Below are positions 13,487-38,433 of a stretch of 64,000 bases of DNA, piece by piece; position 1 is the stretch's first letter, and every line of letters begins with the position of its first letter. A program made the translations under genes and the position numbers. Source of the stretch: Scatophagus argus (taxonomy: Eukaryota; Chordata; Actinopteri; Scatophagidae); NCBI RefSeq assembly GCF_020382885.2, contig NC_058506.1:19260318-19324317 (forward strand). The letters run 5' to 3'. The notes under the pieces were generated by a model. It was not told the origin of the DNA. It worked only from the letters and a program-made list of their open reading frames with translations, and made no database searches.

Positions 13487-15388
13487 TTATGAGGTCGATC
13501 TACCACCGAAGCAAGCTCTGAAGGGCTTCGTAAGAGCTTTGCACACGGATGAAAAGAACCCGACAACAGCGTTCTTCTTTGTCGTTACAGCATTCCCAGT
13601 CAGGTGAGTCTTCAAGGCCTGGATAACAACATCATCAGCAGCTGGATCCTGTGATGCCATTGCTTTCAGGAGCTCCTCTGCAGAGCCAAACTGCTGGCGC
13701 AGATCTCTGAACAAAGCCTTGGAGATCTTCTTCAGAGTTCCACCGTCTGGGCTGACGGCAATGTCAGTGAACTTGATTTCTTCCATCGCCTCATTTCTCA
13801 AATTCTTGATGATCCTATTGAAATCGTCTTGGGGCAGCGACGTCCTGGCCTTCTTTGTCGTATGCAGCAGGAAGCGAACGAGCAGCAGGATGATCAGTGT
13901 GTGCGTTGTGTCACGATCATCTGCTGATGTTGCTGACTCAGAACTACATTTGTCAGGAGAAACCGCTGGCACAGCTGTGGAGTCATCAGGCTGAGCTTCA
14001 CACAGTGAGGCCGCACTGGCTGACTGGGAAATTGCGTCGTTTGGACAACCCGCTTCAGTGCCAGCAGTTTCAGTTGATATCTGGTCGATCGTGTCTCCTG
14101 GTTGGTCTCTGGTATTTGTGTGGTCAGAACTCTGCTGACTTTCTACTGCTTCTTCTAAACTGTCATGGCTACGTACATCAGCACCATGACTATCGTCAGT
14201 ATCCTCACTTTGTTCAGAATCCTCAGAATCCTCAGTATCCTCAGTATCTTCAGTACTTTCACTGTGTTCACTAAAATCAGAATCTGCAGCTCCTTCATTA
14301 TTTTCAGCTCTTTCATTATTTTCAGCTCCTTCTAAACTGTCATGGCTAAGTACATAAGTATCATGACTATCTTCAGTATCCTCACTCTGTTCAGTATCCT
14401 CACTCTGTTCAGTATCAGTATACTGTTCACTCAAATCAGACCCAGAGAAATAATAGTCATACAGATCTGATGTTTCTTGATTTTCAGTATTTGATGTCCA
14501 GAAATTGGTGACCTCTGTCAAAATGTCAAAGGCCTCTCTGTTCAAAACAGAATAAATTACACAACAGGGCCCCTGCTTTATGACGGTATCCTTTTCTTGG
14601 CTGAGGTCTGGAGCTTTGCTTGTGCTGGCCTTGTCTTGGGTTTTGTCTTGTGAGATGGACTGGCACTTCAAATTTTGCATGATTGTATCTAAATCAGGAA
14701 CTAAAGGATCAATATATGTGCTACAGAATTCATAAAAATCACAAGTGCCCACAGTCTCTGTGTTTTCGATGTCATCCAAGATTGGAGATGTGTTTGCTGA
14801 TTTGTAGACCTTTGAAAAGCACTGGCAGCGGTCTTCAAACATGCACACAAGTGATTTAGAAACTAGAAACATCATAGCATAAAGAGTTGTGAATGATATG
14901 CAGTTGCAGTCAAATTTCAAGGGCATATGAATTGGATAGCTGTTCATTATTACTTCTATGCGAGAGTTGATCCTGTCCGTCACCTCACTGGCGACCATCC
15001 CAATTAACCTGTCTAAGCTATTGCACTGATGGGACTCTTTTCTGCTTCCACAAGCAACAGATAAACAATGTGGAAGGATGATTTTCAGGTTTTTCAGAAC
15101 ATCATTCTGTTCTATACCAAAGAAACACCGGTCAGGGTCTACATGACAGAATATCCGTGGGGCTTTCCTGTGCCAGTCAGAAGTAACTGGTCTAATAGCT
15201 TGCAGAATAGTTGTGGAACATGAATGAACAATGCCCTGACATATGCTGATCAGCACAGTGAAACTACATTGGTCATGGATGCCAGATACCACTTTGCTCC
15301 AGTGGTTTCTAACCAGAGACTGTACGTATGGGCTGATAATTATGTTGCTTGGATGGATTGGGGGGAATTTCACGTAAGCGATCACCAT
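13487..15388 (-). CDS. Orphan acidic-repeat protein, copy A (633 aa, intronless)
   Basis: I do not recognise this family. Seen: a single open frame. Residues about 1-190 are cysteine-containing and share HWSKVVSGIHDQCSF, HVDPDRCFFG and LVCMFEDRCQC with copy B. A second conserved block carries LNREAFDILTE. An acidic repeat (EDTEQS/EDTEDS units) spans about residues 310-410. A short hydrophobic run (TLIILLLVRFLLH) and a basic tail (KALTKPFRACFGGRSTS) follow. The ancestral start, at 15416-15414, is now ACG. Translation most likely begins at 15388, where the seventh codon (Lys in B and C) has become ATG. A TATA box lies at 15505-15500. The gene sits downstream of LINE debris within the tandem duplication. 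Cellular location is not known; a nuclear or membrane-associated role would be guesswork. Confidence 0.75.
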   Translation of the reverse strand: MVIAYVKFPPIHPSNIIISPYVQSLVRNHWSKVVSGIHDQCSFTVLISICQGIVHSCSTTILQAIRPVTSDWHRKAPRIFCHVDPDRCFFGIEQNDVLKNLKIILPHCLSVACGSRKESHQCNSLDRLIGMVASEVTDRINSRIEVIMNSYPIHMPLKFDCNCISFTTLYAMMFLVSKSLVCMFEDRCQCFSKVYKSANTSPILDDIENTETVGTCDFYEFCSTYIDPLVPDLDTIMQNLKCQSISQDKTQDKASTSKAPDLSQEKDTVIKQGPCCVIYSVLNREAFDILTEVTNFWTSNTENQETSDLYDYYFSGSDLSEQYTDTEQSEDTEQSEDTEDSHDTYVLSHDSLEGAENNERAENNEGAADSDFSEHSESTEDTEDTEDSEDSEQSEDTDDSHGADVRSHDSLEEAVESQQSSDHTNTRDQPGDTIDQISTETAGTEAGCPNDAISQSASAASLCEAQPDDSTAVPAVSPDKCSSESATSADDRDTTHTLIILLLVRFLLHTTKKARTSLPQDDFNRIIKNLRNEAMEEIKFTDIAVSPDGGTLKKISKALFRDLRQQFGSAEELLKAMASQDPAADDVVIQALKTHLTGNAVTTKKNAVVGFFSSVCKALTKPFRACFGGRSTS

Positions 15389-15413
15389 GACTCCTGATAG
15401 AGCCGTAGTAGCT

Positions 15414-15880
15414 GTTCTTCTACTTGCTTCTCACTTCGTGTTGTCTGCCGCTCTGTCTTCACTTCTCGTGATTAAGCAATTGTGTGCCGCTACGGTCGGT
15501 TTATAAGGACAGGAAGACAGGATTCAAAGCCGTGTCCTTTGATCATCCGGATCAAAGGAATTCGCACTTGACGCCGCAGCAGTGGGCGTGGCCCATCACG
15601 CGAACGACTTCCGGTGAGTGCGACGTCTTTCCGGTGCGCGCAGGGGGCGCGCAGGTGGCGCCCAGACCAGATCTGAAACTGATCAAATATGTTGCTACAA
15701 CAGCAGCTGGAGCCCGAGTCGAATCAAATAATATCCAATCACGATCCTTCTTTAACCTCAACAAGCAGTTTAATAAGCCGAGAGAAGAGCGGGACGGCTT
15801 AACTTTCAGGAGAGTCTGAAAGTCCTGCTGAAGTTCATTTTGGAGAGCAATTAGGAGCTCATGTAGAAACACTTTCCCAT
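15414..15880 (-). promoter_or_regulatory. TATA promoter and 5' UTR of orphan gene A
   Basis: TATAAA is read on the minus strand at 15505-15500, 117 bp before the used ATG. The surrounding roughly 400 bp is nearly identical in all three gene copies, including GC-rich GCGCGC-containing stretches and CACGCCCACTGC. No initiator could be fixed from sequence alone. Confidence 0.6.
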
Positions 15881-16694
15881 TATTTCCGACTGTCGTTGTC
15901 ACTGAGTCAGTGCTGACAGAAACGCAACTCGTCCCACTTTCTCAGTGCGAGATACTGGCTGCGTACTGTCTGCGTGTCACCGCCGGGTGGCGCTGCACCT
16001 TAATCCACATTCACCAAAATATCCGCTTTCACATACACTAAACATACTGGTGACACACAAGGGGAAAAAAATAACCCATTTGGACTGAGGAACAAAAAAA
16101 ATAAGCCACGCATTTGCATGTTTTTGTGAGAAGTAGCAACGCATACAACAAACATAGTCAAATTTGACCAATTCCACATTAAAGAGACTTTTTGTGAGTT
16201 TTGAGAGTTTTATGTGCAAAAATCTTGTCCTCATGTGCTTCAAAGTGCTGAGACTGAATAATATTGAAAAGCTACCGTTTTCTATTTTTCAGGACTTCAT
16301 CTCCAATTCACAGTTAAGCACAGAAATATAACAGATCATTACCAATCATAAAGTCAATAGCTAATAAATTGCCAGACACTAACTAAGGAGACTCCAGTCA
16401 CCTGAAGCCCGAGCTTCTTAAAACCAAAAACAGCCTGGTTAGCATTTAGAAAAGGTCTGTAAATTTAACTGAAGTCTGCTTAAGCGTGGTGTAAATATTA
16501 CATCTCACACATCTCTTTGCTACCTGCTCCATTCAGGAGGTGCTGGATGAAAGAAGCTTGCAGGCAGCCTTTGCAGTTTTCAGTTTCAACTGGTTAAAAA
16601 CAGTTTTCTGGGACTCTGCATAATATGGTGAAAAATACCACATGGGTGATCTGAGGACGTGTGAAACAACTCTTGAGCTGAACAGATAAACTTT
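15880..16694. repeat. Duplicated non-coding flank, copy A end
   Basis: This matches 22683-23497 almost base for base; the one difference I noticed is near 16680. It is non-coding, contains no recognised gene, and stops abruptly at ATAAACTTTG, where the two copies diverge. Confidence 0.8.
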
Positions 16695-16838
16695 GGCGCA
16701 GCGACAGCAGTAATGCGGTCGTTGTATCGGTCCGTCGTGGTAAAGAGAGAGCTGAGCCGTAAGGTGAAGATCTCAATTTACCAGTCAATCTACGTTCCCA
16801 CCCTCACCTATGGTCATGAACTTTGGGTCATGACCGAA
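16695..16838 (+). mobile_element. LINE ORF2 fragment at the tandem-duplication junction
   Basis: The plus strand encodes SVVVKRELSRKVKISIYQSI then VPTLTYGHELWVMTE, a block found in fish non-LTR retrotransposons a short way before the SVTREELG block at 12694 and 19762. Only about 144 bp is present. It lies exactly between the end of copy A of the duplicated unit and the start of copy B. Confidence 0.75.
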
Positions 16839-18650
16839 ACTGCAGTGAACAGGTGAGTCTTCACAAAGGCTCAACACGTTCTGTCTTCCTGTCTGTGACT
16901 CTCAGCTCTGAACCCACTGGTTCCCACAGAAGACGTAAATCTTTCGCTCAGTTCAACAAACAGGAGGTGTTGCAGTCTGGTAAACTGGTCGTCCAGCTGA
17001 GAGAAAACCTCCGTAATGTTTCAGCGTACCCGACTTGGACGGCTCGTTAGACCTAATGTCTTGATGGTGATCAGTCTCGCCGTCCTGTGTTCAAAGGCAG
17101 GAAGAAGAGAGGAGCAAACAGGACTTATGAAAAGATGTCTGGATGTTACAGCTGAAAAAAATATCCTTTAATGTCCTGAGATCACGTCAATTAAAACTTT
17201 GAGAATAACTGATGACAAAAAACAGAAACAAATTTCAGCTGAGATATCATTATTGGTTGCTTTTAACTCTCACATGTCAGTATCAGTGCTTCTCTGCTAC
17301 TCAAGGCCTGAACTCACCAGCCTCAGACTCTGAGAAGGACTTTGGGTAACAGGACAAGGACTCACAGACTCTGAGCATTTCTGCACATCGAGACGAATCT
17401 CCTGTCGTCGTCCGGTCCTGCCAAACGCTGGACTTATACAGCGACTGTGACTCTGCCCAGTCTGTTCTCCGTCCGTCTCTGAGAATTTAGGAACCTTGCA
17501 GGTTGCTGATCTCTCTGGGTGGGGTGCGGGACTTCCTGGGAATACTGGGCTCTGAGACCGACAGGACGTGGACCTCACAGAGGAGGTTAAACTCTCCTGA
17601 GTGATGCTTCAGTGTCAGGGTGTGTCTGACTGACCATCTTAAAGAGAAAAACCACGCAAAGGGCTACAGCTGTAATTCTTAAATGCATTAACATTAATCA
17701 AAGTTGACCTTTGGCTTTTTGGATCACTCGTCATCATTTTCTCCTGTTAAGACATATGAGTGAAATTTTGTCATAATTAGTGCATGAATTCTTGAGTTAT
17801 GGCTGTTATTATTATTGTTAGAACACACAGTACCACAGACACGCTTCAGTCATCGTTGCTTTTATATTTATTTATATAGAGAGGCATATTATTTTAAGTT
17901 ACATGTACATAATAGTTCTATGCTTGTGTTCAACTCTCTTTGCTCAGTCATTATCCTTTGTTTTTAGCTGTACATCCAGTTCTATCCTCTAGTAAATTGT
18001 GCTGTGTGTCACACTCAGTCACTGAATCAAAAACAGGGTCGACCTCCATGTCAGAGCCCTTACTGACGATGACGAGTGCCCTCTTCCTCTCATTTGTCCG
18101 ATGTCACGAGTGCGGACTCCAAACAAACTCACCTCTGAGTTAAAGTTCGGAAAAAGGCGAAGCGAGAACGCTTTAACTACTTAAAGTAGATTAATCCACA
18201 TAATGATCAGTACAGCTCATATCTAAAGGCTCGCGCATAGCAGATACCTTCCGTTCGAGTTAGCTTACACAACCATTGATATGGAAACAAACTGGACACA
18301 CGAGACACTAAAAACTCTTAATAAAGTTCATCTTCTCAATTTTCTCTTAACTTAACCGTACAGCTCAAGAGCACTTTTGGTGTTTGTGTTTTTATATATC
18401 GAAGAGCTAAAGAAAACTGCGATAAATCAAATTATATTCATTTTGGAAACACTCACAGCAGACTTTTCCTCACTTTCGCGGCGCCATGTTTGTTTTTGTT
18501 GACGTAATCACGTGACTTCTACGTAAAGCACGTCTATCACGCTGCCTTCACCGACTACAGGTTCATGTTACTTTTATTATTTTCTACATCCACAAATGTA
18601 AATTTTTTTCATGAAAGAGCTCGAATTGTATTTGAAATCGGTGTCTTCTT
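16839..18650 (-). pseudogene. uimc1: Internally deleted partial duplicate of uimc1
   Basis: Four uimc1 segments are joined in order. 16839-17013 corresponds to 6299-6475, 17014-17600 to 6664-7250, 17601-18055 to about 8555-9030, and 18061-18650 to about 10748-11337. The second segment aligns at a constant offset of 10350 with no indel. Removed are the UIM exon, most of the SPxF exon, and everything downstream of 6300 including both zinc fingers. Retained are the promoter, non-coding exon 1, the start exon (18093-18063) and part of the large exon. No full RAP80 can be made. Divergence from the parent is only a few substitutions, so the event is young. Confidence 0.9.
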
Positions 18651-18689
18651 CTAAAAATAAGAAAGCTATTAAAACTATGAGGGTGTGCT

Positions 18690-19690
18690 CCCACTTTAAT
18701 AAGATTAGATTAGATTCAACTTTATTGTCATTACACATGTACAAGTACAATGCAACGAAACGCAGTTTGACATCTAACCAGAAGTGCAATAAGCAGTAAG
18801 TGCCAGATATACAATAATTTACAGTATGTACAGGTGTCTATGCTACAGATACAATATAAACATGATACACAGGTAGTTGTCATAATATACAGAGATTCTA
18901 AGTACTATGAACATACTATACAGATGGATATGTGCTTAAATGTGCATCCAGTGTAGGCGGAAACTATAACACAATTTACAAATGATATGTACAGATGTTA
19001 AATTAACTATAAATCACTAGTGCAATGGATAGCATGGTGTGTACAGCGATAGGCAGTAGGCTAACTATATTAGCAGTGAGGTAGAGGAACTAGTGCAACA
19101 CTCAGTACGTAGTACTCAGTTAGGATAGGGTGGTGTAGTGGAGTGTGGTGTAGGGTGAGGGTGTTAGTGGGGGGCTGAGTTCAGTAAGGAGACAGCCCTG
19201 GGGAAGAAGCTGTTGCTCAGCCTGCTGGTCCTGGCCTTGAGGCTCCTGAAGCGGCTGCCAGACGGCAAGAGTGCAAATAGACCACGAGCAGGGTGGGAGG
19301 AGTCCTTGAGGATGCTGCGAGCTCGACGCAGACAGCGTTTCCTCTGGGTGTCTTCAGGGGCTGGAAGTGGAGTCCCTGTGATGCGCTGGGCGGTTTTCAC
19401 CACTCGCTGAAGCGCCTTGCGGTCTGCAACCGAGCAGTTCCCATACCATCCTGTGACACAGCTGGTCAGGATACTTTCGATTGCACAGCGGTAAAAGTTC
19501 ACCAGGATGGCTGAAGACAGATGGTGTTTCTTCAGTGTCCTCAGGAAAAAGAGGCGCAGATGAGCCTTCTTCACAAGGCTGGAGGTGTTGGTGGTCCAGG
19601 TCAGGTCCTCTGAGATGCAGGTCCCCAGGAACTTGAAGCTGGAAATCCGATCTTGGGCGGGCGGGAAAAGAAAATGATTAACTTTTTCCA
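18690..19690 (-). mobile_element. 5'-truncated Rex1/L2-like LINE, different family from 11392-12640
   Basis: On the minus strand the 3' terminus has (TCTAA)n at about 18697-18715 and a CACTTCTGGTTAGATG-type 3' UTR. The ORF2 C-terminus lies at about 19680-19164, with FKFLGTCISEDLTWTTNTS, LVNFYRCAIESILTSCVTGW and ARGLFALLPSGSRFRSLKAR. The C-terminal frame is open. The upstream RT and endonuclease are missing. It sits at the same relative position as the other LINE at 11392-12640. Confidence 0.8.
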
Positions 19691-19761
19691 TACAGGAGCT
19701 TCGGTACGTTCGCCTCATCTCCTGTATTTTTTTGTTTTTGGTTTTTTTTTTCACATATATT

Positions 19762-20205
19762 CTTAGTAGGGTGAGGAGCTCCGTCACCCGGGAGGAGCTC
19801 GGAGTAGAGCCGCTGCTCCTCCACATCGAAAGGAGCCAGTTGAGGTGGCTCGTGCATTTGTTTCGGATGCCCCCTGGACGCCTTCCTGGGGAGGTGTCCC
19901 GGGCACGCCCCACCGGGAGGAGGCCCCGAGGAAGACCCAGGACACGCTGGAGGGACTATGTCACTCGGCTGGCCTGGGAACGCCTTGGGCTCTGCCCGGA
20001 AGAGCTGGAGAAAGTGTCTGGGGAGGGGGAAGTCTGGGCATCTCTGCTCAAGCTGCCGCCCCCGCGACCCGGTCCCAGATGTTTTATTTTTTTTTCATTT
20101 TATTATTATTTGTTATTTTGTATTTTGTATGGTGTATGGAGTCAAATTCCTTGTATGGTCAGAATCAAATAAAGCTGATTTTGATTCTGATTCTGATTCT
20201 GATCA
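19762..20205 (+). mobile_element. C-terminal LINE remnant, duplicate of 12694-13130
   Basis: This shares sequence and borders with the copy at 12694-13130, including the SVTREELG block and the AATAAAGCTGATT(CTGATT)n tail. It is part of the tandem duplication rather than an independent insertion. Confidence 0.75.
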
Positions 20206-20216
20206 ATCGTTTTTTT

Positions 20217-20290
20217 TTAGGAATGTGGGAAGAAACCGGAGCACCCGGGGAAAACCCTTACCAACATGGAGAGAGCACACACACATACAC
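20217..20290 (-). repeat. SINE-like repeat fragment, copy B
   Basis: Same fragment as at 13141-13215. Here the A-specific AATAAA (minus strand, about 13136) has been replaced by a homopolymer T run, so any polyadenylation signal must differ from copy A. Confidence 0.55.
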
Positions 20291-20378
20291 ACCTCACCAA
20301 CAGGTGTGAAGGCAGCAAACCTTCACCTTGCTGCCGTGAAGTCGCAGTGTGAATTGTTGAGGCACCTCATGTCCTTTT

Positions 20379-20443
20379 CATGTCATCACGATGAGAACAC
20401 GTGAACAGGTGCTCTCTCCAGGTGTTCTCATCGTGATGAGATG
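20379..20443 (-). other. Conserved 3' UTR hairpin, copy B
   Basis: Arms 20379-20400 and 20422-20443 match at 21 of 22 positions in inverted orientation, with a 21-nt loop. It lies about 120 nt after the stop of orphan gene B. Confidence 0.75.
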
Positions 20444-20564
20444 TCGTCCTATTTGATGTCGTCCTATTTGGCTGTCCAGGCGTTGGCCTGTCCACACCAA
20501 TGAACAGGCAAACACAATGAGCCAAAATGGCATGGAATTTTGGCGCGGAAGAAGACGGGATCTG

Positions 20565-22202
20565 TTATGAGGTCGATCTACCACCGAAGCAAGCTCTGAA
20601 GGGCTTCGTAAGAGCTTTGCCCACGGATGAAAAGAACCCGACAACAGCGTTCTTCTTTGTCGTTACAGCATTCCCAGTCAGGTGAGTCTTCAAGGCCTGG
20701 ATAACAACATCATCAGCAGCTGGATCCTGTGATGCCATTGCTTTCAGGAGCTCCTCTGCAGAGCCAAACTGCTGGCGCAGATCTCTGAACACAGCCTTGG
20801 AGATCTTCTTCAGAGTTCCACCGTCTGGGCTGACGGCAATGTCAGTGAACTCGATTTCTTCCATCGCCTCATTACTCAAATTCTTGATGATCCTATTGAA
20901 ATCGTCTTGGGGCAGCGACGTCCTGGCCTTCTTTGTCGTATGCAGCAGGAAGCGAACGAGCAGCAGGATGATCAGTGTGTGCGTTGTGTCACGATCATCT
21001 GCTGATGTTGCTGACTCAGAACTACATTTGTCAGGAGAAACCGCTGGCACAGCTGTGGAGTCATCAGGCTGAGCTTCACACAGTGAGGCCGCACTGACTG
21101 ACTGGGAAATTGCGTCGTTTGGACAACCCGCTTCAGTGCCAGCAGTTTCAGTTGATATCTGGTCGATCGTGTCTTCTGGTTGGTCTCTGGTATTTGTGTG
21201 GTCAGAACTCTGCTGACTTTCTACTGCTTCTTGTAAACTGTCATGGCTAAGTACATAAGTACCATGACTATCTTCAGTATCCTCACTCTGTTCAGTATCC
21301 TCACTCTGTTCAGTATCCTCACTCTGTTCAGTATCAGTATACTGTTCACTCAAATCAGACCCAGAGAAATAATAGTCATACAGATCCAATGTTTTTTGAT
21401 ATTCAGTATTTGATTTCCAGAAATGACTGAACTCTGTCAAAATGTCAAAGGCCTCTCTGTTCAAAATAATATAAAATGTACTACAGGGCCCCTGCTGTAT
21501 GATGGCACGCAGAGGCTTTTCCTCTTCTTGGCTGTGGTCTGAAGCTTGACTCGTGCTGGTCCTGTCATCTAAGATTGGAGATGTGCTTGCTGAGTTGTTG
21601 ATCTGTGAAAAGCACTGGCAGCTGTCTTCAAACATGCACACAAGTGATTGATGAACTAGAAACATCATAGTATCAAGAGTTGTGAATGACATGCGTTTAC
21701 AGTCAAATTTCAAGGGCGTCTGAATTGGATAGCTGGTGTTCATTATTACATCTATGCAAGAGTTGATCCTGTCCGTCACCTCACTGGCGACCATCTCAAT
21801 TAACCTGTCTAAGCTATCGCACTGATGGGACTCTTTTCCGCTTTCACAAGCAGCAGATAAACAATGTGGAAGGATGTTTCTCAGGTTTTTCAGAACATCA
21901 TTCTGGTCTAAACCAAAGAAACACCGGTCAGGGTCTACATGACGGAATATCCGTGTCGCTTTCCTGTGCCAGTCAAAAGTAACTGGTCTAATAGCTTGCA
22001 GAATAGTTGTGGAACATGAATTAACAATGCCCTGACATATGCTGACCAGCACAGTGAAACTACATTGGTCATGGATGCCAGATACCACTTTGCTCCAGTG
22101 GTTTCTAACCAGAGACTGTACGTATGGGCTGATAATTGTGTTGCTTGGTTCCATTGAGGGGAATTTCGCGTAAGCGATCACCTTGAGTCCTGATAGAGAC
22201 AT
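20565..22202 (-). CDS. Orphan acidic-repeat protein, copy B (545 aa, intronless)
   Basis: Same unrecognised family as copies A and C. I chose the ATG at 22202 (MSLSGLKVIAYAKFP) because copy C starts at the matching position; an in-frame ATG at 22265 would add 21 poorly supported residues. The N-terminal region is about 80-85% identical to A by eye. The acidic repeat is shorter, with four DTEQSE-type units and no second SEHSESTEDTE block. The last about 200 residues, including the hydrophobic helix and basic FFSSVGKALTKPFRACFGG tail, are nearly identical to C. The TATA box is at 22308-22303. Neighbours are LINE debris downstream and the duplicated flank upstream. Function is unknown. Confidence 0.78.
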   Translation of the reverse strand: MSLSGLKVIAYAKFPSMEPSNTIISPYVQSLVRNHWSKVVSGIHDQCSFTVLVSICQGIVNSCSTTILQAIRPVTFDWHRKATRIFRHVDPDRCFFGLDQNDVLKNLRNILPHCLSAACESGKESHQCDSLDRLIEMVASEVTDRINSCIDVIMNTSYPIQTPLKFDCKRMSFTTLDTMMFLVHQSLVCMFEDSCQCFSQINNSASTSPILDDRTSTSQASDHSQEEEKPLRAIIQQGPCSTFYIILNREAFDILTEFSHFWKSNTEYQKTLDLYDYYFSGSDLSEQYTDTEQSEDTEQSEDTEQSEDTEDSHGTYVLSHDSLQEAVESQQSSDHTNTRDQPEDTIDQISTETAGTEAGCPNDAISQSVSAASLCEAQPDDSTAVPAVSPDKCSSESATSADDRDTTHTLIILLLVRFLLHTTKKARTSLPQDDFNRIIKNLSNEAMEEIEFTDIAVSPDGGTLKKISKAVFRDLRQQFGSAEELLKAMASQDPAADDVVIQALKTHLTGNAVTTKKNAVVGFFSSVGKALTKPFRACFGGRSTS

Positions 22203-23497: not shown

Positions 23498-23664
23498 GAA
23501 ATTAAATTTAACATCCATCGTTATTACAGATCCTTAATTATTGGCTATAAAATAAGAGAAATCCAAATTAAATTTGACAACTAAATTTTAATCCTTAACG
23601 GATTCAACAATGTTTTAATCTTACACTCAAGAACCCGGAAACATCAGAACCAAAAAAAAAAGTT

Positions 23665-28989: not shown

Positions 28990-29070
28990 CTTACTTTAAG
29001 TGAGAAATAACAGAGACGCCGAATCGCTGCTCAAAATGGACACTCCAAATTCGCCGCTAACTCGTGGCAA
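28990..29070 (-). promoter_or_regulatory. hnrnpab: hnrnpab non-coding first exon and promoter region
   Basis: On the minus strand, a donor AA|GTAAG at 28994-28990 follows a stretch containing TCCATTTTGAGCAGCG. A 5' UTR acceptor (CTCTCAG|AGCCC) lies just upstream of the ATG at 27698. This implies a first intron of about 1.3 kb inside the 5' UTR. A TATATATG run lies upstream at about 29071-29078. Inferred, not proven. Confidence 0.45.
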
Positions 29071-29099
29071 CATATATATGACCGGATGTGACCAAGCGC

Positions 29100-32000
29100 C
29101 AGGGTACGTTGCAGTGAAAAAGCCTGTGATTGGACAAACCGATCATTTGTTCGAATAAAGACGTGACATTATTGGCTGATTGGACTGATGAGAAACAAAT
29201 ACAACAGCTAAATGTTCTTCCTGCTTCCTGTGCTCTCACGGCTCCTGGCAAAGATATTTCGGTCTAAATGGAGTGGCAATGGCTAACCTATTTTTACGTG
29301 CATTTATTTTACTTGGTGAACACGAAAGTGTCTCTGAAGTAGCTTTAAATAGAATGAAATGTTACTTACTACGGGGTTTCATCTTTCCGCGTGGTTTCTG
29401 TTTCAGAAACTTTTAACAGTGCTGATGGTGCCCATAGCCCGATACTTGGACACTGAAAATAATGTCAGATTTTATTTTAAGATGTTTTTACTGTTTACAG
29501 TTGTAATGATAATAATATAATGTTTATATACAAGTGAGTTGTTTTCAATAGAAAAAAAAGAGGGAAAGGTTCAATAGCCCTCCATTATTGTTGGCACTTC
29601 TACCAATTCTACCAGTGATTTAAAGCCCTCATTACAGCTTTATGCATTCCCTCAACTTTTATTGATTTTTGGTTCTTTTCACCTTTCATTCTACCACCAA
29701 GTAAAGCGTCTGAGAGTAAAGCATCTGAGAGTATTCTCAATCTCACACCACCTCATCAGGAGTTCGTTCTGTTCTATTGACCATGTGAAGTTACACAGGG
29801 ATACTTTTGACAACATTTATTATAAAGGCACATTCAAATAGACCCAGAATGTTGTTGCTAAAAATAAATGCAGAGAGGGTAGAAAAAGTAGCTGTGACAA
29901 GTGGTATGCAAATGTGAGATGAGTCCACATGAATCCAGTTGTTGAGCATCATGCCCTGTTGGACAACATGGTTTTTGTGTGACTTGAAAATTTCACACAC
30001 TCAGATGTGAAGTTACACTCAGAGATCATGAACTTCGCCTGTTGTAACATATTTATCACACAAACCACTTTACTGCATTCCAGTGATTTATGTATGCATA
30101 CATTCTCACATTTTTAATTTTAATAAGGTTTCATTTTTATGATATTTAATTTTTGCTTACCTATTTTTTGGTAGCAGGGACATAAAAAATTTCACTGCAC
30201 ATTGTACCGTGTATGATTGTGTATGTGACAAATAAACCTATCTGGTATCTTGCTTTACTACAGTGTCTGAGCAGGCATAAAGTCAGAGTAAGTGTCATAT
30301 GGATGGAGGTTTAAACTCACTTGCATTACATTAAGTCACATCAGGCCTATGGAGCTGTGGCAAAAAAGCATTAAAAAACTTGAGACAAGACACATGAAAT
30401 CCTGACAGGCCTTGTGATGAGCTGTGCATTTTAAAATATTTGCTTCCCATAAACAAGTTTATAGCCTGAGTATCTTCATTATTTCAGCTATAAATTTCAA
30501 TTTTGTGAAGCATTTTTCTTGAGCCTTTGGTATGAAAACAGGCAAAATGTCATCATCACTCAAATGAAAGCAGTTTTTCCGTGGCTCAGGAGGACTTTTT
30601 AAGGTTTGAGAAAATAATGTCAGGGCTAAATTGGCTAAAAGTCAGACTTTCTCAGCATCTGCAATGAGTTTTTAGTTTAATTTTACATCAGTGTCCCTCA
30701 CAAGTCTTCAGACTTGTTCGAAGTGCAACCCCCAATCACTGCAGTACAGTACAGCATACGGGACAGTGCACTCAGATTTAAAACCCTGAGTGCAATACAA
30801 TATCTGGGTCTGTGACACAGACGAGGCCGCACCAGATATTGTGTGGCTGAAATGAATACGTATGGTAAAACACGTGAGAGTGCTGTGGTCACGCGAAAAA
30901 CAGCAAAACTGCCAAGTGCTCTGAATGCTTCACCACGGCAACATCAACTCTGCCTGCCAGCCAGGGGCAAGTCGAGGCATGACCTGTATGGACACACACA
31001 CACGCACACACACGCAGTGAAGTCGTCGTTGTGGAGACAGTTGTGTTTCTCCAGCAGTGGTCACTTCTAAACAGAGCGGTGAAAAATGCAGCGACTGCAG
31101 GTAGGATCACAACACTCATCCGTGCACACACAGAACTGAATTTAGGCATTGCTGCTGTTTACAAATGTTTCTCAGCTTGCAGTTGGGGACAGAAGAGTTT
31201 ACTGCATGAAGAGCCCTGAGATGTTTGGATGTTGAAGCAGTCAGGAGCAGCCGATCAGAGTTCTGCTTTACGAGGGTCTGGGCGAAATGAAGTTTTAAAA
31301 CAGGAATAAATGCCTGAAAATCACTGAAGAAGGGCTGCCCCAGTCGCTGGTAAATTTTTTCAGTCATTTTATTCTATCCTGTTATTTTTGACTAACATTG
31401 TCTGGTTTATGTGCAGGAACTTCCCCCAGGGACTCAGAACCTTTGGAGGAACTTGGGGAAACCAAGCAAATCTTATTTCTTAAAATGTTGAGCTCCTTTA
31501 AGGAAATTTCTGAAAGTGATTCTCTTTTTTGTAGGGGTCTTTTTAAACTATATTTTGCAAAAAGCTTCTCCTTACACCGGCTTGAAGAGCTCCAGACTGT
31601 CAGCATAGTTTCAGGTTAAATCCTTCGTGCAAAACCAACTGATCTCAAGTCAGTGTGTCAGCTGCAGTGTTGCGGTGACTGCAGTTGGGGTTGCTGTGTA
31701 GGCAGTGTTGTTAGCTGATTGTTCTTACACACCAATCACTAACTACACTACCAGTACAACCACCGCCACGCACAGCCGTCAGCCACATTCTGATGCCTGT
31801 TTGACAACAAAACACTGAAAAGCCCCACCTGCTCATCTCACAGACTTCATGTTGACATTTTACACAAAAATGATCCCTCAAGAGAGCAGCATTTTGTATT
31901 CATTTTGTCTTAACTCACAGTCCTGTATACAGACTTAAGGCTCCATCTGTTTTGTTTTCGGGTAAGGAAGTTTACTGGTTACAATGATATCCTGAGGTCA

Positions 32001-32250
32001 TTAAAAACCAAAGCATGAAATGAAAGAGGAAACACTTTCAAAATGACCAGCAGAGCTGACACGGACGCATTTATTTCTTTTCAATGACTGTTCAATGTTA
32101 CTTTATTCACACTTACTTTAATTTTAGTTTAAAAACACATTTAGAAGGCAGAATTACTTAAAATACTTCAATATTTCAAAGTTTAAAAACATGCTTAAAC
32201 AGCATTATTTTAAGTCATTGACATTATAAATCATGCACGAATAATAAACT
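29100..32250. other. Intergenic DNA between hnrnpab and btg4
   Basis: No exon with support was found. It contains a LINE 3' end (30110-30250), a short (CA)n around 30990-31016, and otherwise AT-rich unique sequence. Confidence 0.5.
30110..30250 (+). mobile_element. L2-type LINE 3' end fragment
   Basis: The sequence ATTTCACTGCACATTGTACC, then a variant of GTGTATGTGACAAATAAA, is a typical 3' UTR end of fish and tetrapod L2-like elements. No coding part is present. Confidence 0.5.
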
Positions 32251-32391
32251 CTTATCCTTTACAGACACAAATTGTCCTGAAACTTTTTTCCCCCCCACCA
32301 CAAACAGGGTCCATGGCGCTTTGAGCCGCCATCATGGCTGCCTACCCTGCGGTAACCTGATAGTAGTTCGGGGTTGAAGGACCAGCTTGCG

Positions 32392-34620
32392 CTAGGATCG
32401 GGATTTGCTAACCCAGTGGTACTTGTCAACACGAGGCCCAGTGAAGGTGAATGTGGGTCGATAGGACTTGAAGCCTTTTTGGCTGGAGAACTGAGAGGTC
32501 GGACCTCCACCTGAAGGAGCGTGAGGTGGGAATGGATCCCCAGCAAAGGCCTTGCGCTTCTCCCTGAGCCAGGTCTGAGGGGCGCCTGGAGAAAACTCAC
32601 TGAACTGAGGGAGAAGCAGAGGGCAGAGGAGCAGGCATGAAAAGGTTTGTCTGGTTTAACTGGTAAAATGTAAGATTTGTCATTTTCAGCGTTTATTAGA
32701 GGCCTGAAGGTGAAGCTGTTGTGTCACTGGTGACCTGCAAATTCTGACCAACATTAAAGAGCTTAATACTCAAACCCATCGCCAAACAAGGAACAGTTGG
32801 ATAATTATGAGAAACTCCAAGTTGTCCAATGCCAACATTTTAAAAATGATTTCTACAATATCTGAACATGGCAACTACAGAGTTAAGACCACAGAGAGCA
32901 ATCGGGGGTCAGAGTTAATAAAAACATCCTTCATGTAGCCAACCTACCCGGTAGACGCTGTTGGGGTTGCTGACGGTTGGGATGGTTTTGGGCTCAGGGT
33001 TTGTGGGCGGGATTGGAACAGGACAGAGAGCTGATAGGCTACTGCTACTCATGCTGCTGTCTGCTCCCCCCTCCTCCTCTTCGTCTGAAGAGCTTCCTGA
33101 CTGGACATCAAGGCTCGCCCGCTCCACCGCATCATGGATGCGGCGGGAAAATTCCCCATCTCCACGCCGACAGCTGTCCACCACGGAGACGCAAAATGGA
33201 GCGCTGTGTTCGCCGTACCTACAAGGCGGAATTAAACCAATCAGGAAAAGAAAACTAATCTAAACACAAACTGAAATGTAAAATAATTAGAAAACAAAAG
33301 TTGTGTGCTGGAACTATTTCTTGGCCTGGTGCAATGATCCTCAAATTTTGTCAACGTCAAGCTAAACTGAGCGCCTGCTGCTTTGGCTTCCTATAAACTA
33401 AAGCATGCAGAGATGACTGCTAAAAAGTTTCAGTTGATGGGAATTTAAAGTAACAGTTAAATATTTGAGAAATATGCTTTTGTTCCAAAGCCAAAGCAAA
33501 ATTCTCCAATTTAAATGAGCTTTTAATGCAGATTAAAAGGAAGTCTGTCAAAAAATATTTACTTTAAATCAGCCGCAGTTTTGAGGCGTAACAATCCTGA
33601 CAAACAGCCACTTCTGTGACCCCGATAAGATCACCTCATTCAGAGGCCTGACCTGCAGGACACCTCTCCAGGGTCGACCCACACTGTTAGCTCCTGGGGA
33701 AGGCCAAGATCCTCGTAGCGCACCGCGCTCTGCTCGCAGGCCTGCTGCAGCACCGGGTCCTGCAGCCGCACGCGGTTCATCCGCAGACACCTGAAACACA
33801 CAGCACGACATATTAGATCAGGACCTCTTTGAGGTATCTGTGAGATACTTCAGTCTCAGCCCCAAGTGAAATTTCATTTGAGCTCAGCCACAAGAAACTA
33901 GAATCATCAGCAACATGTGCATATGAGAACCCACCTGTCAATCACTCAGTTTTCATTGGAACTACTCTACCTTTAATGAGGAAACAGTCCCTGTGAAAAA
34001 CTGTTCAGAGGATTATTCACATTAACAATAATACCACAGTTAAAGTACATTTTTACAGAATATGAGGCAAACTCTTTTAGCACGTGTGTGTTACAGGGAC
34101 TGTTTTAGCACAAGGTGTGTTCACAGTGAGGCTTGGACTGAAGGGAGGTGTTCTTAAAGTCAGAGGGTTGAGACCAAATGCAGCGATCCTCTGGAACACT
34201 CAGTTCACTGACAAAATGTACTTTAATTTCAACATTAACTAGCAAGCGTGCAGTGAATTGAACAAACGGTGCATTTTATTACTCTTGACTTCACTTTATG
34301 TGGTATTGCTACAGACTTCATGTCCCACATTTGTATCAGTTTGGCAGCCACCATAGTGGAGAGCAAGCAAAGCACCACCGCTGAATCCTCCAAACTGGAT
34401 CTTTTTAAAAACAACAAGAATTACAAACAAACTGAAGGTTCACTGACCTGTAGGCCTGTCCTTTGGTCGGTGCGTTCGGGTGCCAGTGGTTCTTGTAATT
34501 CTCAAACAGAACTGAGGTGAGGGCGGCGGCAAAGCGCTCCCTGCCTTCGTTATCCAGACAGCCATACCGCTTCACCAGCCGAGCCACAAAGAACACAGCA
34601 GCAGCAATCTCCTCCTTCAT
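32392..34620 (-). CDS. btg4: BTG/Tob family anti-proliferative protein, most like btg4 (4 exons, 264 aa)
   Basis: BTG proteins bind the CAF1/CCR4-NOT deadenylase; BTG4 drives maternal mRNA clearance in vertebrate oocytes and eggs. Exons 34620-34448, 33790-33653, 33218-32948 and 32604-32392 join in phase to 795 bp. The BTG domain covers residues about 1-115: MKEEIAAAVFFVARLVKRYG at the N-terminus, box A around ENYKNHWHPNAPTKGQAYRC, and box B LGLPQELTVWVDPGEVSCRY. A Ser/Asp/Glu-rich linker follows, then IPTVSNPNSVYRF and FKSYRPTFTF. VSNPxSxY and the ILFE-type helix favour BTG4 over BTG3; the last residues (KYHWVSKSRS) recall BTG3. A (CA)n run abuts the start codon on the 5' side; an in-frame upstream Met would add 18 residues encoded partly by that repeat. 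Confidence 0.88.
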
Positions 34621-34639
34621 GGCCACACACACACACACA

Positions 34640-35970
34640 CACGACTTTCTAAACTCTGGCTTAATGAACAAAAACTCAACCCTGCACTGTTAAAAACCTC
34701 TACTGAGAATAAAACACACGTAGGCTGATCCTACTTTCATAGAAAACAAACAAACAAGCAAACAAACAAAAAAAAAGACATAAAACTGACAGGACGAGCT
34801 GGAGGCCAGACAACTTAAGCAAACATATTTGCTGCTGGAGCTCTAGGGAGAACTCAGCTTTGGTTTCTAAGGCTGCCACAACAATAAAAAACAAAAGTTT
34901 GATGTGTAAATGTGTGTAAGAGGCAGCAGCTTGTTCAATAGCACAAACCTCACGTACATCACATACTAAAAGAAGTTTAATGAAACCAGCTGTGTGACAA
35001 GCTTGTCACACACCTGAAGCTGGTTGATTTAATGACTCTCTGTGTGTGTTTGTGTGTAATTGATGCTTACGCCAAAGTAAAAAATAACTTCAGGACTTCA
35101 GGTTTAGAAAATAAATTATTAACTCACCCCATCTCTGCAGCAGTTCAGTGGTGAAAGTATCAGAATGTCAAAAAAGTTAAACACTTACAAAATTCTGTTA
35201 CAGAGTCAGTTCACTTGATTGCAATTTGTATGAAATGTCTATAAAATACAGGCAACATACAGCATATTACTGGTGGTTGGTTCGTTTCTAAGTGTGTGCA
35301 TTTGATTTGAGAGAAAGTAAAACCTGCTAGATTTTAATGACAGAGTCATCAGTAACCAAACTAAATGAACTCTCTGTGGAAAATAACACCATTATATTGT
35401 AGTTTTTTATACTAATTGTGTATGTTTGGGCGCCACCTCCTGCTTGTTTATTTTTGCACATGAAAGACCACAACGGGGCTGTTTTGTGTGATACTTAGTG
35501 GCCCCCAGGTTCTCAATATGTCAGCTAAACGACACTCAACTCCACAATGTGGATACGAACGAGTGGCAAAGACACACACTGGAAGGAAAACGAGTCAACT
35601 CATCAGGTCAGCTCAGTGGCAAACTGCCCTCCCTTTGCGCCTGTTGATGGGCGGTTGACGGACGCAGATCCCTCGGGAAAATAAAAGTAGCAACACCACA
35701 ACATGAAGATAAACCGCTGTGATGACACAAGACCTTCTCCTGATGTACGGGGACCTGGCGATACTGACTGTCATACTGACTTATTTTTGTACAAATTTGT
35801 GAGGTGGCCCGCACAGATCGCAGGTTTGTACACTGGGATCTTCTGGACGATATCCAACTTTACGTTTACAAGCTCGTTTCTGTCCGGTTAGCGGGCTAGC
35901 TGTGTGGAGTCCTGTATCATACAAGCGACCAGCTGAATCCGCACCATTTAAAAATAAACAAGCTTATTTA
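34640..35970. other. Intergenic DNA upstream of btg4
   Basis: No coding exon is recognisable. It probably includes the btg4 promoter. The homology block of orphan copy C starts at 35974 (CAGTCGGAAATAA). Confidence 0.45.
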
Positions 35971-35973
35971 TGT

Positions 35974-36428
35974 AACAGTCGGAAATAAAGTGTTTCTACA
36001 TGAGCTCCTAATTGCTCTCCAACATGAACTTCAGCAGGACTTTCAGACTCTCCTGAAAGTTAAGCCGTCCCGCTCTTCTCTCGGCTTATTAAACTGCTTG
36101 TTGAGGTTAAAGAAGGATCGTGATTGGATATTATTTGATTCGACTCGGGCTCCAGCTGCTGTTGTAGCAACATATTTGATCAGTTTCAGATCTGGTCTGG
36201 GCGCCACCTGTGCGCCCCCTGCGCGCACCGGAAAGACGTCGCACTCACCGGAAGTCGTTCGCGTGATGGGCCACGCCCACTGCTGCGGCGTCAAGTGCGA
36301 ATTCCTTTGATCCGGATCATCAAAGGACACGGCTTTGAATCCTGTCTTCCTGTCCTTATAAACCGACCGTAGCGGCACACAATTGCTTAATCACGAGAAG
36401 TGAAGACAGAGCGGCAGACAACACGAAG
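35974..36428 (+). promoter_or_regulatory. TATA promoter of orphan gene C
   Basis: TATAAA lies at 36357-36362. The upstream 400 bp is nearly identical to the promoters of copies A and B. The distance to the ATG is 176 bp because of an insertion at 36429-36507. Confidence 0.6.
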
Positions 36429-36507
36429 ATTCAAGATTCAAAATTCAAGAGTCTTTATTGTCATTATCCAAGCACAACGAAATTTTGTGCAGATTCTCGG
36501 AACTGAG
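36429..36507 (-). mobile_element. LINE 3' end inserted in the 5' UTR of orphan gene C
   Basis: This stretch is absent from copies A and B at the same place. On the minus strand it reads as a 3' UTR (GTGCTTGGATAATGACAATA then AAGACTCTTGAAT) with a TTGAATC-type repeat tail. It lies between the promoter and the ATG. No clear target-site duplication was found. Confidence 0.65.
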
Positions 36508-36537
36508 AAGCATTTTACAAGTAGATGAACAGTCACT

Positions 36538-38433
36538 ATGTCTCAATCAGGACTCAAGGTGATCGCTGAAGTGAAATTTCCCCCAATCCCACCATGCAAG
36601 ATAATTATCAACCCATACGTACACCCTCTGGTTGAAGACCACTGGAGCAAAATCGTATCTGGCATTCATGACCAATATAGTGTCAATTTGCTGATTAGGA
36701 TGTGTGAGGATATTGTTAATTCATGTTCCATAACTATTCTGCAATATCTTGAGCCCATCGTTGCTGACTGGAAAAGGAAAGCCCCTCGAATATTCAGTCA
36801 TGTAGACCCTGACCAGTGTTTCTTTGGCATAATTAAGGAGGATGTCTTTGACAGTGTGAGACACGTCCTTCCACTTTGTTTCAGGTTTGCTTGTGAGAGC
36901 AGAGGTCTGCTTCATCAGTGCAATAGCTTAGACTTCTTCGCTGAGCTTATTGCCGAAGAGGTGACAGGAAGAGTCAACTTGTGCATAGCTGAAAAACTGA
37001 ACATCAGCCCTTCGTCTGATGTCAGCATGAATTTTGACTGTAACTGCATCCTTTTCCCAGCTGCTTATACTATGATGAGTGTAATTTCTAGTTCACTTGT
37101 ATGCATGTTTGAAGACACTTGTCAGTGTCCTTTGCAGAACAAAACCTTAAAGGAGGCAAACACCTGTCCAGCTACAGACTGCAAACAAGAAACACGAATG
37201 GAGCTAGCTATGACCTTGTCTAAGTGCACGTGCCCCTTTTGCACATCTATTGACTGTAGGTATCATATAATTATCCATTCACTTGCGTGCCACCAAACCT
37301 CAGACAGTACCAGTGCAAGGCGAGCCTTGGATTGTGGCCACACATCTGTAAGACCAATGCATAGGTGCGTAGAGCAGCATTTCTGTTCTATTGCGTATTC
37401 TACTTTGAACAAAGAGGTCTTAGACATTTTCACAGAGCTCACCACATTTTGCGCTCCAGATTCTAGTGAAAGTGAAAGTGAAAGTCTTGACAGTGAAGAG
37501 GACCTAAATGATTATGAGTGTGGCGATGTGATTTGGTCTCTGCCTAATGTCGCAGAAGCTGAAGATGATGAAGAAGCTGAAAATAATGAAGGAGCTGAAA
37601 ATAATGAAGGAGCTGCAGATTCTGATTTTAGTGAACACAGTGAAAGTACTGAAGATACTGAAGATACTGAGGATACTGAGGATACTGAGGATACTGAGGA
37701 TTCTGAACAAAGTGAGGATACTGAAGATAGTCATGGTGCTTATGTACTTAGCCATGACAGTTTACAAGAAGCAGTAGAAAGTCAGCAGAGTTCTGACCAC
37801 ACAAATACCAGAGACCAACCAGAAGACACGATCGACCAGATATCAATTGAAACTGCTGGCACTAAAGCGGGTTGTCCAAACGACGCAATTTCCCAGTCAG
37901 CCAGTGCGGCCTCACTGTGTGAAGCTCAGCCTGATGACTCCACAGCTGTGCCAGCGGTTTCTCCTGACAAATGTAGTTCTGAGTCAGCAACATCAGCAGA
38001 TGATCGTGACACAACGCACACACTGATCATCCTGCTGCTCGTTCGCTTCCTGCTGCATACGACAAAGAAGGCCAGGACGTCGCTGCCCCAAGAGGATTTC
38101 AATAGGATCATCAAGAATTTGAGTAATGAGGCGATGGAAGAAATCGAGTTCACCGACATTGCCGTCAGCCCAGACGGTGGAACTCTGAAGAAGATCTCCA
38201 AGGCTTTGTTCAGAGATCTGCGCCAGCAGTTTGGCTCTGCAGAGGAGCTCCTGAAAGCAATGGCATCACAGGATCCAGCTGCTGATGATGTTGTTATCCA
38301 GGCCTTGAAGACTCACCTGACTGGGAATGCTGTAACGACAAAGAAGAACGCTGTTGTCGGGTTCTTTTCATCCGTGGGCAAAGCTCTTACGAAGCCCTTC
38401 AGAGCTTGCTTCGGTGGTAGATCGACCTCATAA
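36538..38433 (+). CDS. Orphan acidic-repeat protein, copy C (631 aa, intronless)
   Basis: Third member of the unrecognised family. The start ATG at 36538 (MSQSGLKVIAEVKFPP) aligns with copy B. Residues 1-200 are about 60% identical to A and B, keeping HWSKIVSGIHDQ, HVDPDQCFFG and LVCMFEDTCQC. C then has an extra cysteine/histidine-rich stretch (residues about 203-285, including CTCPFCTSIDCRYH) that A and B lack. The LNKEVLDIFTEL block, an acidic tract with about six EDT units (residues about 355-400), the hydrophobic run and the basic tail follow. From about 37720 to the stop it is almost identical to B. An amphipathic C-terminal helix is likely from the sequence. No known enzyme motif is visible; function is unknown. 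Confidence 0.8.
   Translation: MSQSGLKVIAEVKFPPIPPCKIIINPYVHPLVEDHWSKIVSGIHDQYSVNLLIRMCEDIVNSCSITILQYLEPIVADWKRKAPRIFSHVDPDQCFFGIIKEDVFDSVRHVLPLCFRFACESRGLLHQCNSLDFFAELIAEEVTGRVNLCIAEKLNISPSSDVSMNFDCNCILFPAAYTMMSVISSSLVCMFEDTCQCPLQNKTLKEANTCPATDCKQETRMELAMTLSKCTCPFCTSIDCRYHIIIHSLACHQTSDSTSARRALDCGHTSVRPMHRCVEQHFCSIAYSTLNKEVLDIFTELTTFCAPDSSESESESLDSEEDLNDYECGDVIWSLPNVAEAEDDEEAENNEGAENNEGAADSDFSEHSESTEDTEDTEDTEDTEDTEDSEQSEDTEDSHGAYVLSHDSLQEAVESQQSSDHTNTRDQPEDTIDQISIETAGTKAGCPNDAISQSASAASLCEAQPDDSTAVPAVSPDKCSSESATSADDRDTTHTLIILLLVRFLLHTTKKARTSLPQEDFNRIIKNLSNEAMEEIEFTDIAVSPDGGTLKKISKALFRDLRQQFGSAEELLKAMASQDPAADDVVIQALKTHLTGNAVTTKKNAVVGFFSSVGKALTKPFRACFGGRSTS

What the first reader, a model, noticed from the sequence alone, without database searches (positions are those of the whole stretch)
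13487..38433. Unassigned intronless gene family with three intact copies (A, B, C)
Three long ORFs (633, 545 and 631 codons) share a layout: a Cys-containing N-terminal region, an acidic S/T-D-E repeat, a short hydrophobic helix and a basic amphipathic tail. They also share a TATA promoter and a 3' hairpin. I recognise no known family and no transposase, polymerase or protease motif. All three frames are open despite heavy substitution, which argues for selection on protein. This is the best candidate in the window for an undescribed system. One neighbour, btg4, is oocyte-specific in other vertebrates, so a germline role is a testable guess only.
Basis: partly seen in the sequence, partly recalled or inferred. 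Interest (0 to 1): 0.88.

Follow-up and report, generated by a model that had tools for sequence, protein, structure and literature searches.

The report
Undescribed fast-evolving intronless fish gene family
The three genes belong to a large, unnamed family of intronless fish genes that share a start-of-gene signal and a folded RNA hairpin with other intronless genes, two of which resemble sperm-tail genes, which hints at a common switch in male germ cells.

Summary
In detail: A, B and C are intact single-exon ORFs (633, 545, 631 codons) with the stated layout, TATA promoter and 3' hairpin, and match no known protein family tested. "Three copies" is too few: relatives number at least 29 large open frames on 11 contigs (15 read in full) and 27 near-full-length short ones (13 read; 11 of these with a C-terminal membrane anchor). 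A and B differ mainly by amino-acid changes (dN/dS 2.7, uncorrected p 0.004) between nearly identical flanks. The non-coding parts are more telling. CTTTGAT lies upstream in 9 of 9 subfamily representatives. Long perfect 3' stems occur in 13 of 15 large loci (background 1 of 119). A covarying mini-hairpin (CC--GTGCT--GG) is in 11 of 12 large loci checked. It also follows unrelated intronless ORFs, among them WDR64-like and CFAP58-like ones (sperm-axoneme names); 7 of 10 have CTTTGAT upstream. Best reading: a lineage-expanded family in a shared, probably male-germline programme; the protein's role (membrane-bound helical scaffold) is inferred. Against it: no expression data, no other fish genomes, and parts of the 3' region resemble repeats. 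AlphaFold models were too poor to search. The Gig1 lead could not be tested.

The parts
13487..15388 (-). ORF A, 633 aa
   Evidence: family match
20565..22202 (-). ORF B, 545 aa
   Evidence: family match
36538..38433 (+). ORF C, 631 aa
   Evidence: family match
15500..15557 (-). A promoter core: CTTTGAT, ATCAAAG, TATAAA
22303..22360 (-). B promoter core: CTTTGAT, ATCAAAG, TATAAA
36305..36362 (+). C promoter core: CTTTGAT, ATCAAAG, TATAAA
13305..13361 (-). A 3' hairpin, 18-bp stem
20383..20439 (-). B 3' hairpin, 18-bp stem
38559..38615 (+). C 3' hairpin, 18-bp stem
13157..13179 (-). A mini-hairpin box (stem GG/CC, loop GTGCT)
20233..20255 (-). B mini-hairpin box
38743..38765 (+). C mini-hairpin box
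35987..36428 (+). 5' flank of C, 99-100% identical to those of A and B; no other place matched it in the genome search
   Evidence: 40 of 488 candidates scored
36426..36498 (+). dispersed repeat inserted between the TATA box and the ATG of C
   Evidence: 37 further places among the 40 candidates scored

Best explanation
A, B and C are members of an undescribed, lineage-expanded family of intronless fish genes run by a shared expression programme, most likely in male germ cells. Shown: single-exon open frames, copied with their own promoters; CTTTGAT sites upstream (HMG-box/TCF-like by recall), a TATA box in 6 of 9 representatives; long 3' stems and a covarying GTGCT mini-hairpin in the 3' region. 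Unrelated intronless ORFs, among them a WDR64-like and a CFAP58-like one, carry the same mini-hairpin and often the same promoter word. Shown for A against B: more amino-acid than silent change in the N-terminal half between nearly identical flanks; against C, the 3' half and the flanks are 97-98% identical while the 5' half is about 75%. Inferred: HMG-box factors drive transcription in spermatids; the 3' hairpins control storage, stability or timing of translation of these unspliced mRNAs; the protein is a helical scaffold fixed to a membrane by its amphipathic Cys-bearing tail (a likely true membrane anchor in most short relatives); its N-terminal domain diversifies in a conflict such as sperm competition or gamete recognition.
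For: Family: at least 29 large open frames of 455 aa or more on C2, C4, C6, C9, C11, C13, C14, C17, C19, C20, C23 and 27 near-full-length short matches, counted by hand; alignments. Promoter: among all 7-mers CTTTGAT ranks first, 9 of 9 representatives (p 8e-10 before correction for 1885 words; background is the window, shared descent not modelled); GTTGCTA 6 of 9; CTTTGAT in 5 of 5 further loci, three of them close relatives. 3' stems: 13 or more Watson-Crick pairs in 13 of 15 large loci against 1 of 119 window segments and 0 of 13 short loci. Folding energy of the best 110 nt lies below all 85 background segments (lowest -51.8) in 10 of 13 large loci and 12 of 15 further loci. 3' regions are 67-84% identical where fourfold sites are 56-65% and 5' flanks 45-60%, in seven subfamily pairs. 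Stems HP1-HP3: 93-94% of cells paired against 27-58% when slid. Mini-hairpin: 76 strict matches, 0 in the reversed control; the free pair is A/T in 32, G/C in 41, mismatched in 3; four stem types in the family. Other genes: of ten ORFs beside a box, 7 have CTTTGAT within 350 nt (chance 0.108 each, p 1.6e-5; without L057, which was also picked by a promoter pattern, 6 of 9, p 1e-4); WDR64 (9fqr, E 2.6e-30), CFAP58 (8j07, E 3.6e-8). Selection: A-B 73 nonsynonymous and 8 synonymous differences, ratio 2.69, p 0.004; 7 mismatches in two 600-nt flanks.
Against: No transcript, protein or other-species data. Testis rests on two of ten ORFs: L057 matches generic WD40 proteins as well or better, and the Pfam CFAP58 match of L065 is below its cut-off; two others are kinases, six unnamed. 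L059, L062 and L063 lack CTTTGAT within 350 nt of the first ATG; 3 of 13 box loci fetched outside the family (L053, L054, L060) have no ORF of 300 aa or more. CTTTGATC-25..55-TATAAAT is only 111 genome-wide against 73 in the control. By energy A and C are not exceptional: 6 and 8 of 85 background segments fold as strongly. L017 has no stem and no box. Only 1 of 5 short loci has the box. The 3' arm of HP1 matches scattered short places (27 of 40 matches), and box and HP3 resemble a fish tRNA-like repeat (recalled), so repeats contributed to the 3' region. 3' regions are not more conserved than fourfold sites in L010-L016, L009-L010 and L011-L013. Covariation against shuffles is mixed (HP3: 342 of 500 shuffles reach the observed doubly changed pairs). 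Of 20 gene pairs only A-B is significantly above 1, not after correction; 16 are below 1. L066 boxes do not pair.
Confidence: 0.46

Rival explanations
1. Innate antiviral effectors: the family is related to fish Gig1 (GCRV-induced gene 1), an interferon-induced, fish-only multigene family, and its N-terminal variability comes from an arms race with viruses.
For: Excess replacements between A and B and tandem copies. Salmon gig1-like genes have their coding region (222-240 aa) in one exon, occur in tandem, and show no domain beyond PANTHER PTHR38706 (passages of PMC12247413); the short relatives read here are 163-228 aa single-exon ORFs. One large member, L016, has GAAANNGAAA at -384.
Against: No GAAANNGAAA within 1 kb upstream of A, B or C (nearest -1199 and -1188; none in 2 kb for C). 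Salmon gig1-like has a separate small exon and a long intron, whereas 6 of 9 large representatives here have a TATA box 99-181 nt before the ATG. The same promoter word serves WDR64-like and CFAP58-like ORFs. No Gig1 sequence was available to compare.
Confidence: 0.14
2. Retrotransposition cargo: the 3' mini-hairpin comes from a SINE or LINE tail that reverse transcriptase recognises, so any mRNA that carries it is copied often; the shared 3' end explains the intronless copies rather than regulation.
For: The box lies after unrelated intronless ORFs. In L056 and L054 it sits in a tRNA-like repeat (sequence; the repeat's identity is recalled). Part of HP1 is dispersed. The C14, C2 and C19 units end at the same ATTCTG repeat.
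Against: Copies carry their promoters (L011-L013 5' 300 nt 90% identical), which mRNA copies would lack. The flanks of C occur only at A, B and C. CTTTGAT upstream is shared by unrelated ORFs. L010 and L016 each have two boxes, one well inside the 3' region.
Confidence: 0.18
3. Maternal (oocyte) genes, as the first reader guessed from btg4.
For: BTG exons about 1.7 kb from the promoter of C and divergent from it. TATA promoters and structured 3' UTRs also suit stored oocyte mRNAs (general knowledge).
Against: Position does not show shared expression; 26 of the 29 large loci are not in this window. mir-34 lies in the same interval. Two of the ORFs sharing the box resemble sperm-axoneme proteins.
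Confidence: 0.12
4. The 3' hairpins are processed into small RNAs (microRNA-like or hairpin siRNA) that regulate paralogs; the protein may be secondary.
For: Long stems, energies down to -79 kcal/mol per 110 nt, conservation of both arms in the HP1-HP3 subgroup.
Against: No Rfam family reaches its gathering score in ten family loci. ORFs are maintained. Perfect stems outside the subgroup have other sequences.
Confidence: 0.09

Closest known systems
Fish Gig1 / PANTHER PTHR38706 (SI:CH211-198C19.1-RELATED)
   Same: Fish multigene family, coding region in one exon, tandem copies, no other domain reported; the short relatives here are of similar length
   Different: No interferon-type site near A-C; TATA box directly before the ATG; A-C are about 2.5 times longer; sequence relation untested
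Sperm-axoneme proteins WDR64 and CFAP58 and the intronless ORFs that resemble them here (L057, L065)
   Same: Intronless ORF, CTTTGAT upstream, mini-hairpin in the 3' region
   Different: No protein similarity between the 28 family proteins read and L057-L066 at E 1e-4
Replication-dependent histone genes (recalled)
   Same: Intronless, multicopy, conserved stem-loop in the 3' region
   Different: Other stem and loop, further long hairpins, poly(A) signals in A and C, unrelated proteins
Teleost tRNA-like SINE repeats (recalled)
   Same: Box and HP3 resemble parts of such a repeat
   Different: In the family the element stands at a steady place after the stop with covarying stems

Membership tests
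Gig1 / PTHR38706 | sequence similarity to Gig1 | not testable with these tools
   no Gig1 sequence or PANTHER library held
Gig1 / PTHR38706 | interferon-response element near the promoter | tested here: not met
   none within 1 kb upstream of A, B, C (L016 has one at -384)
Gig1 / PTHR38706 | small first exon, then one coding exon of 222-240 aa (salmon) | tested here: inconclusive
   single coding exon met; lengths 545-633 for A-C, 163-228 for short relatives; no transcripts to show a first exon
DNA transposon or retroelement ORF | dispersed flanks; transposase or reverse transcriptase domain | tested here: not met
   flanks of C only at A, B, C; no such Pfam domain
Viral or phage protein | match in viral or phage collections | tested here: not met
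   C alone; C and three relatives against PHROGs; profile searches could not run
Intronless family described here | C-terminal helical domain | tested here: met
Intronless family described here | N-terminal domain | tested here: met
   C with L011 E 2e-9, L015 E 1e-8, L013 E 2e-7; weak with L009, L016, L025; none listed with L010, L012, L017
CFAP58 or WDR64 family | sequence match of A-C | tested here: not met
   C against PDB sequences, no hit to E 5; family proteins against L057 and L065, none

The most novel reading that the evidence does not exclude
Fish have a cell-type regulon of many unrelated intronless, multicopy genes, defined by a common promoter code (repeated CTTTGATC plus TATA) and a common 3' stem-loop, much as histone genes are defined by theirs. 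It lets retrogenes and orphan families join one male-germline programme of unspliced mRNAs, and A-C are fast-evolving effectors of it.
Probability: 0.28. Interest if true: 0.85.

Novelty: new variant of a known kind. Interest (0 to 1): 0.58.

Why it matters
Lineage-expanded intronless genes are often taken for retrocopies without control regions of their own. Here unrelated ones share a promoter word and a covarying RNA stem-loop, which makes it testable whether a genome recruits new genes into one germline programme through two short signals. The family itself is at least 56 loci strong, with no domain name in Pfam for the members tested, and one tandem pair shows a signature of positive selection.

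Tried and rejected
Known domain or fold: Pfam on single members and per-member scans (best E 0.0017, AAA_assoc_C in 2 of 17; no family in more than 3 members), PHROGs, and PDB sequences and profiles (best E 0.015) gave nothing convincing. AlphaFold2 on the A/B/C alignment (pLDDT 32.1) and on the C-terminal 152 residues (45.0) was too poor, so no fold search was run. N- and C-terminal domains as copies of each other: no (hhalign probability 1%). L062 as a distant member: suggestive only (probability 39.6%, E 3e-4). Mobile element: rejected for A-C; the unit shared by C14 and C2 has repeats beside it but no clear terminal repeats of its own. Gig1: the passages read held no sequence or primer. 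Interferon sites: none near A-C. Rfam: only sub-threshold matches in ten family loci. In the paper searches no listed title or abstract opening described this family, this motif set or such a regulon (open-access library; listings only). A first background for folding energy used a coarser step than the family did; it was redone at the same step, which removed A and C from the exceptional set.
Full report
What is there. The window is C14:19260318-19324317 of a 570.7-Mb genome in 48 contigs, by gene content a fish; no species name was given. A, B and C are the only ATG ORFs of 250 aa or more. A and B lie in a tandem duplication of about 7 kb and C is inverted. C shares with A and B about 440 nt of 5' flank (99-100% without gaps) and about 1.1-1.2 kb covering the 3' part of the ORF and the 3' flank (97-98%), while the 5' part is about 75% identical. 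Searching the genome with 574 nt around the start of C matched the flank only at A, B and C (40 of 488 candidates scored), apart from a dispersed repeat of about 73 nt inserted between the TATA box and the ATG of C; 287 nt after the stop matched only A, B and C. So the unit is not a mobile element.

Family. The genome gave 54 matches with C, 72 with L015, 43 with L010, 67 with L025 and 47 with the short member L021; these searches report lower bounds. Counted by hand from the tables, large loci with an open frame of 455 aa or more number at least 29 on 11 contigs, A-C included; 15 were read in full (A-C, L009-L018, two in L025), the other 14 are known from the open-frame column. Near-full-length short matches number 27 on 7 contigs; several contain one stop, which in the fetched L022, L027 and L028 lies before the ATG used, while C6:25110050 has an internal TGA; 13 short ORFs were read. 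Large members have an N-terminal helical domain (invariant W36, D45, E141 in C numbering), a variable middle and a C-terminal domain of about 130 aa ending in an amphipathic basic tail. Short members keep the C-terminal domain; 11 of 13 end in a stretch with Kyte-Doolittle mean above 2, a tail anchor by its look. AlphaFold predicted helices throughout but with low confidence.

Selection. A against B: 73 nonsynonymous and 8 synonymous differences over 534 codons, dN 0.061, dS 0.023, ratio 2.69, two-sided Fisher p 0.004; in the first 300 residues 59 and 6 (p 0.011). The two 600-nt flanks differ by 2 and 5 mismatches plus 7 and 9 gap positions. Twenty pairs were computed; after correction A-B is not significant. 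A-C (1.10), B-C (1.16) and L011-L013 (1.15) are near 1, the other 16 below 1; all 10 short pairs are below 1, 4 of them with p under 0.05. The reading is diversifying change of the N-terminal half and homogenisation of the rest, probably by gene conversion (inferred).

Promoter. All 7-mers in the 300 nt before the ATG of nine subfamily representatives were ranked against the window: CTTTGAT/ATCAAAG was first (9 of 9), GTTGCTA was in 6 of 9, TATAWA in 6 of 9. For L015 the inner ATG was used; counted from its first ATG the site falls inside the ORF. Five more loci all had CTTTGAT, four of five GTTGCTA; three of these five are close relatives. CCTTTGATC is the TCF/LEF consensus and GTTGCTAAGC resembles an RFX half-site; both names are recalled. 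No interferon-type site lies within 1 kb upstream of A-C; L016 has one at -384.

3' region. Thirteen of 15 large loci have a perfect stem of 13 or more Watson-Crick pairs within 500 nt of the stop (L011 has 11, L017 none), against 1 of 119 other window segments and 0 of 13 short loci; 3 of 13 short loci have one in the 5' flank. Of 15 further 3' regions (14 large loci and C9:6086711, a 198-aa relative) 6 have such a perfect stem. Against 85 background segments scanned at the same step (lowest -51.8, median -34.1), 10 of 13 large loci and 12 of 15 further ones fold more strongly than every background segment; A (-44.7) and C (-44.4) do not, and stand out only by their perfect 18-bp stem. L011, L013, L014/15, L025 and relatives share a train HP1-HP2-HP3, L012 only HP2-HP3. 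In seven subfamily pairs among L011, L012, L013, L015 and L025 the 3' regions are 67-84% identical, fourfold sites 56-65%, 5' flanks 45-60%; this fails for L010-L016 (51 against 71%), L009-L010 (53 against 64%) and the close pair L011-L013 (87 against 91%). On alignments of 9 or 10 chosen rows stems are kept in 93-94% of cells, with 2 of 31 (HP2), 3 of 21 (HP1) and 2 of 18 (HP3) pairs changed on both sides; shuffles reaching these numbers were 13, 38 and 342 of 500, and 11, 5 and 25 of 500 for the covariation score. The HP2-HP3 segment gave 34 matches, by coordinates all but four (C19:403502, C19:404000, C11:22221696, C11:23503782) within about 2 kb of a family match. HP1 gave 40: 13 near-full-length beside family ORFs or their remains, and 27 of 32-69 nt that are mostly scattered, so part of HP1 is a dispersed repeat.

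Mini-hairpin box. GTTTNCTCCGNGTGCTNCGGTTT occurs 76 times (38 on each strand) and 0 times read backwards; the two free letters are A/T in 32, G/C in 41, A/C in 1 and C/C in 2 (counted). In the family the stem is GG/CC, GA/TC, AG/CT or AA/TT around a constant GTGCT loop. A relaxed form is in 11 of 12 large loci examined (not L017) and in 1 of 5 short ones. Many copies are recent duplicates, so 76 is not 76 events.

Other genes with the same signals. Thirteen box loci outside the family were fetched (L053-L057, L059-L066). Ten have an intronless ORF of 340 aa or more that ends 11-356 nt before a (relaxed) box; the strict box of L066 is 665 nt away and neither of its boxes pairs. Seven of the ten have CTTTGAT within 350 nt upstream (p 1.6e-5); L057 had also been picked by a promoter pattern, and without it 6 of 9 remain (p 1e-4). 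L057 matches WDR64 over 277 residues (PDB 9fqr, E 2.6e-30), though generic WD40 proteins score as well or better; L065 matches CFAP58 (8j07, E 3.6e-8; Pfam E 4.5e-4, below cut-off); L056 and L066 are protein kinases; six are unnamed. The tails of the kinases (KRIRKFFTRMFKSFDCC; RRIRDFFYSFFV) and of L062 (RKRIQMFFCSLCCC) look like the family tail (not tested statistically). L058, chosen by the promoter pattern alone, has a 909-aa intronless ORF and no strict box. Genome-wide the promoter pattern is 111 against 73 in its control, so the promoter words alone do not mark the genes.

Mechanism. Shown: intronless ORFs, shared promoter words, folded 3' elements, copies with their promoters, N-terminal excess of replacements in one pair. 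Inferred: HMG-box-driven spermatid transcription, post-transcriptional control by the hairpins, membrane attachment by the tail, conflict-driven diversification. That WDR64 and CFAP58 are sperm-axoneme proteins, and that btg4 beside mir-34b/c is a vertebrate arrangement with testis expression of mir-34b/c, is recalled; the calls give only the names (111, 114) and the positions (71, 78).

Comparison with known kinds. Gig1 is the nearest published fish family by size and lack of domains (passages of PMC12247413), but no sequence could be compared and the promoter argues against it. In zebrafish nearly 28% of orphan genes have a single exon, and 12 of the orphan genes with tissue data (50.0%) are listed under gonad (passages of PMC3599513), which fits in kind. 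Whether other fish have this family could not be tested: only this fish genome was held.

Noticed in passing
31693-31760 (+), 33646-33801 and 34432-34620 (-): mir-34 by Rfam (62.1 bits) beside BTG-domain exons: by recall the btg4/mir-34b/c interval.
   Followed up: partly
C6:18.56-20.64 Mb (L053, L054), L056 (C7:21607500-21610300), L066 (C14:4245500-4249100): Intronless protein-kinase ORFs (L056, L066; a fragment in L054) with the 3' box; 26 of the 76 box copies lie on C6 at 18.56-20.64 Mb.
   Followed up: partly
L063 (C12:19553500-19557000) and L064 (C13:14366600-14370100): Two similar-looking intronless coiled-coil ORFs (633 and 563 aa) on different chromosomes, both with the A/T form of the box.
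   Followed up: no
C14:9057213-9061044, C2:25096683-25100514 and the C19:2.62-Mb copies: A 3.8-kb family unit 98.8% identical between two chromosomes; the C14, C2 and C19 copies part at the same ATTCTG repeat, and at C14 palindromic repeats stand on both sides of the larger C19-type unit.
   Followed up: partly
54524-54585: A 28-bp perfect inverted repeat with a 6-nt loop, the only one of 13 or more pairs among 119 other window segments.
   Followed up: no
L010 and L016, 3' regions: Two copies of the mini-hairpin box in each, as if a module had been duplicated.
   Followed up: no
L024 and L027, 5' flanks of short members: Perfect inverted repeats of 20-22 Watson-Crick pairs 270-420 nt before the ATG in 3 of 13 short loci.
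   Followed up: no
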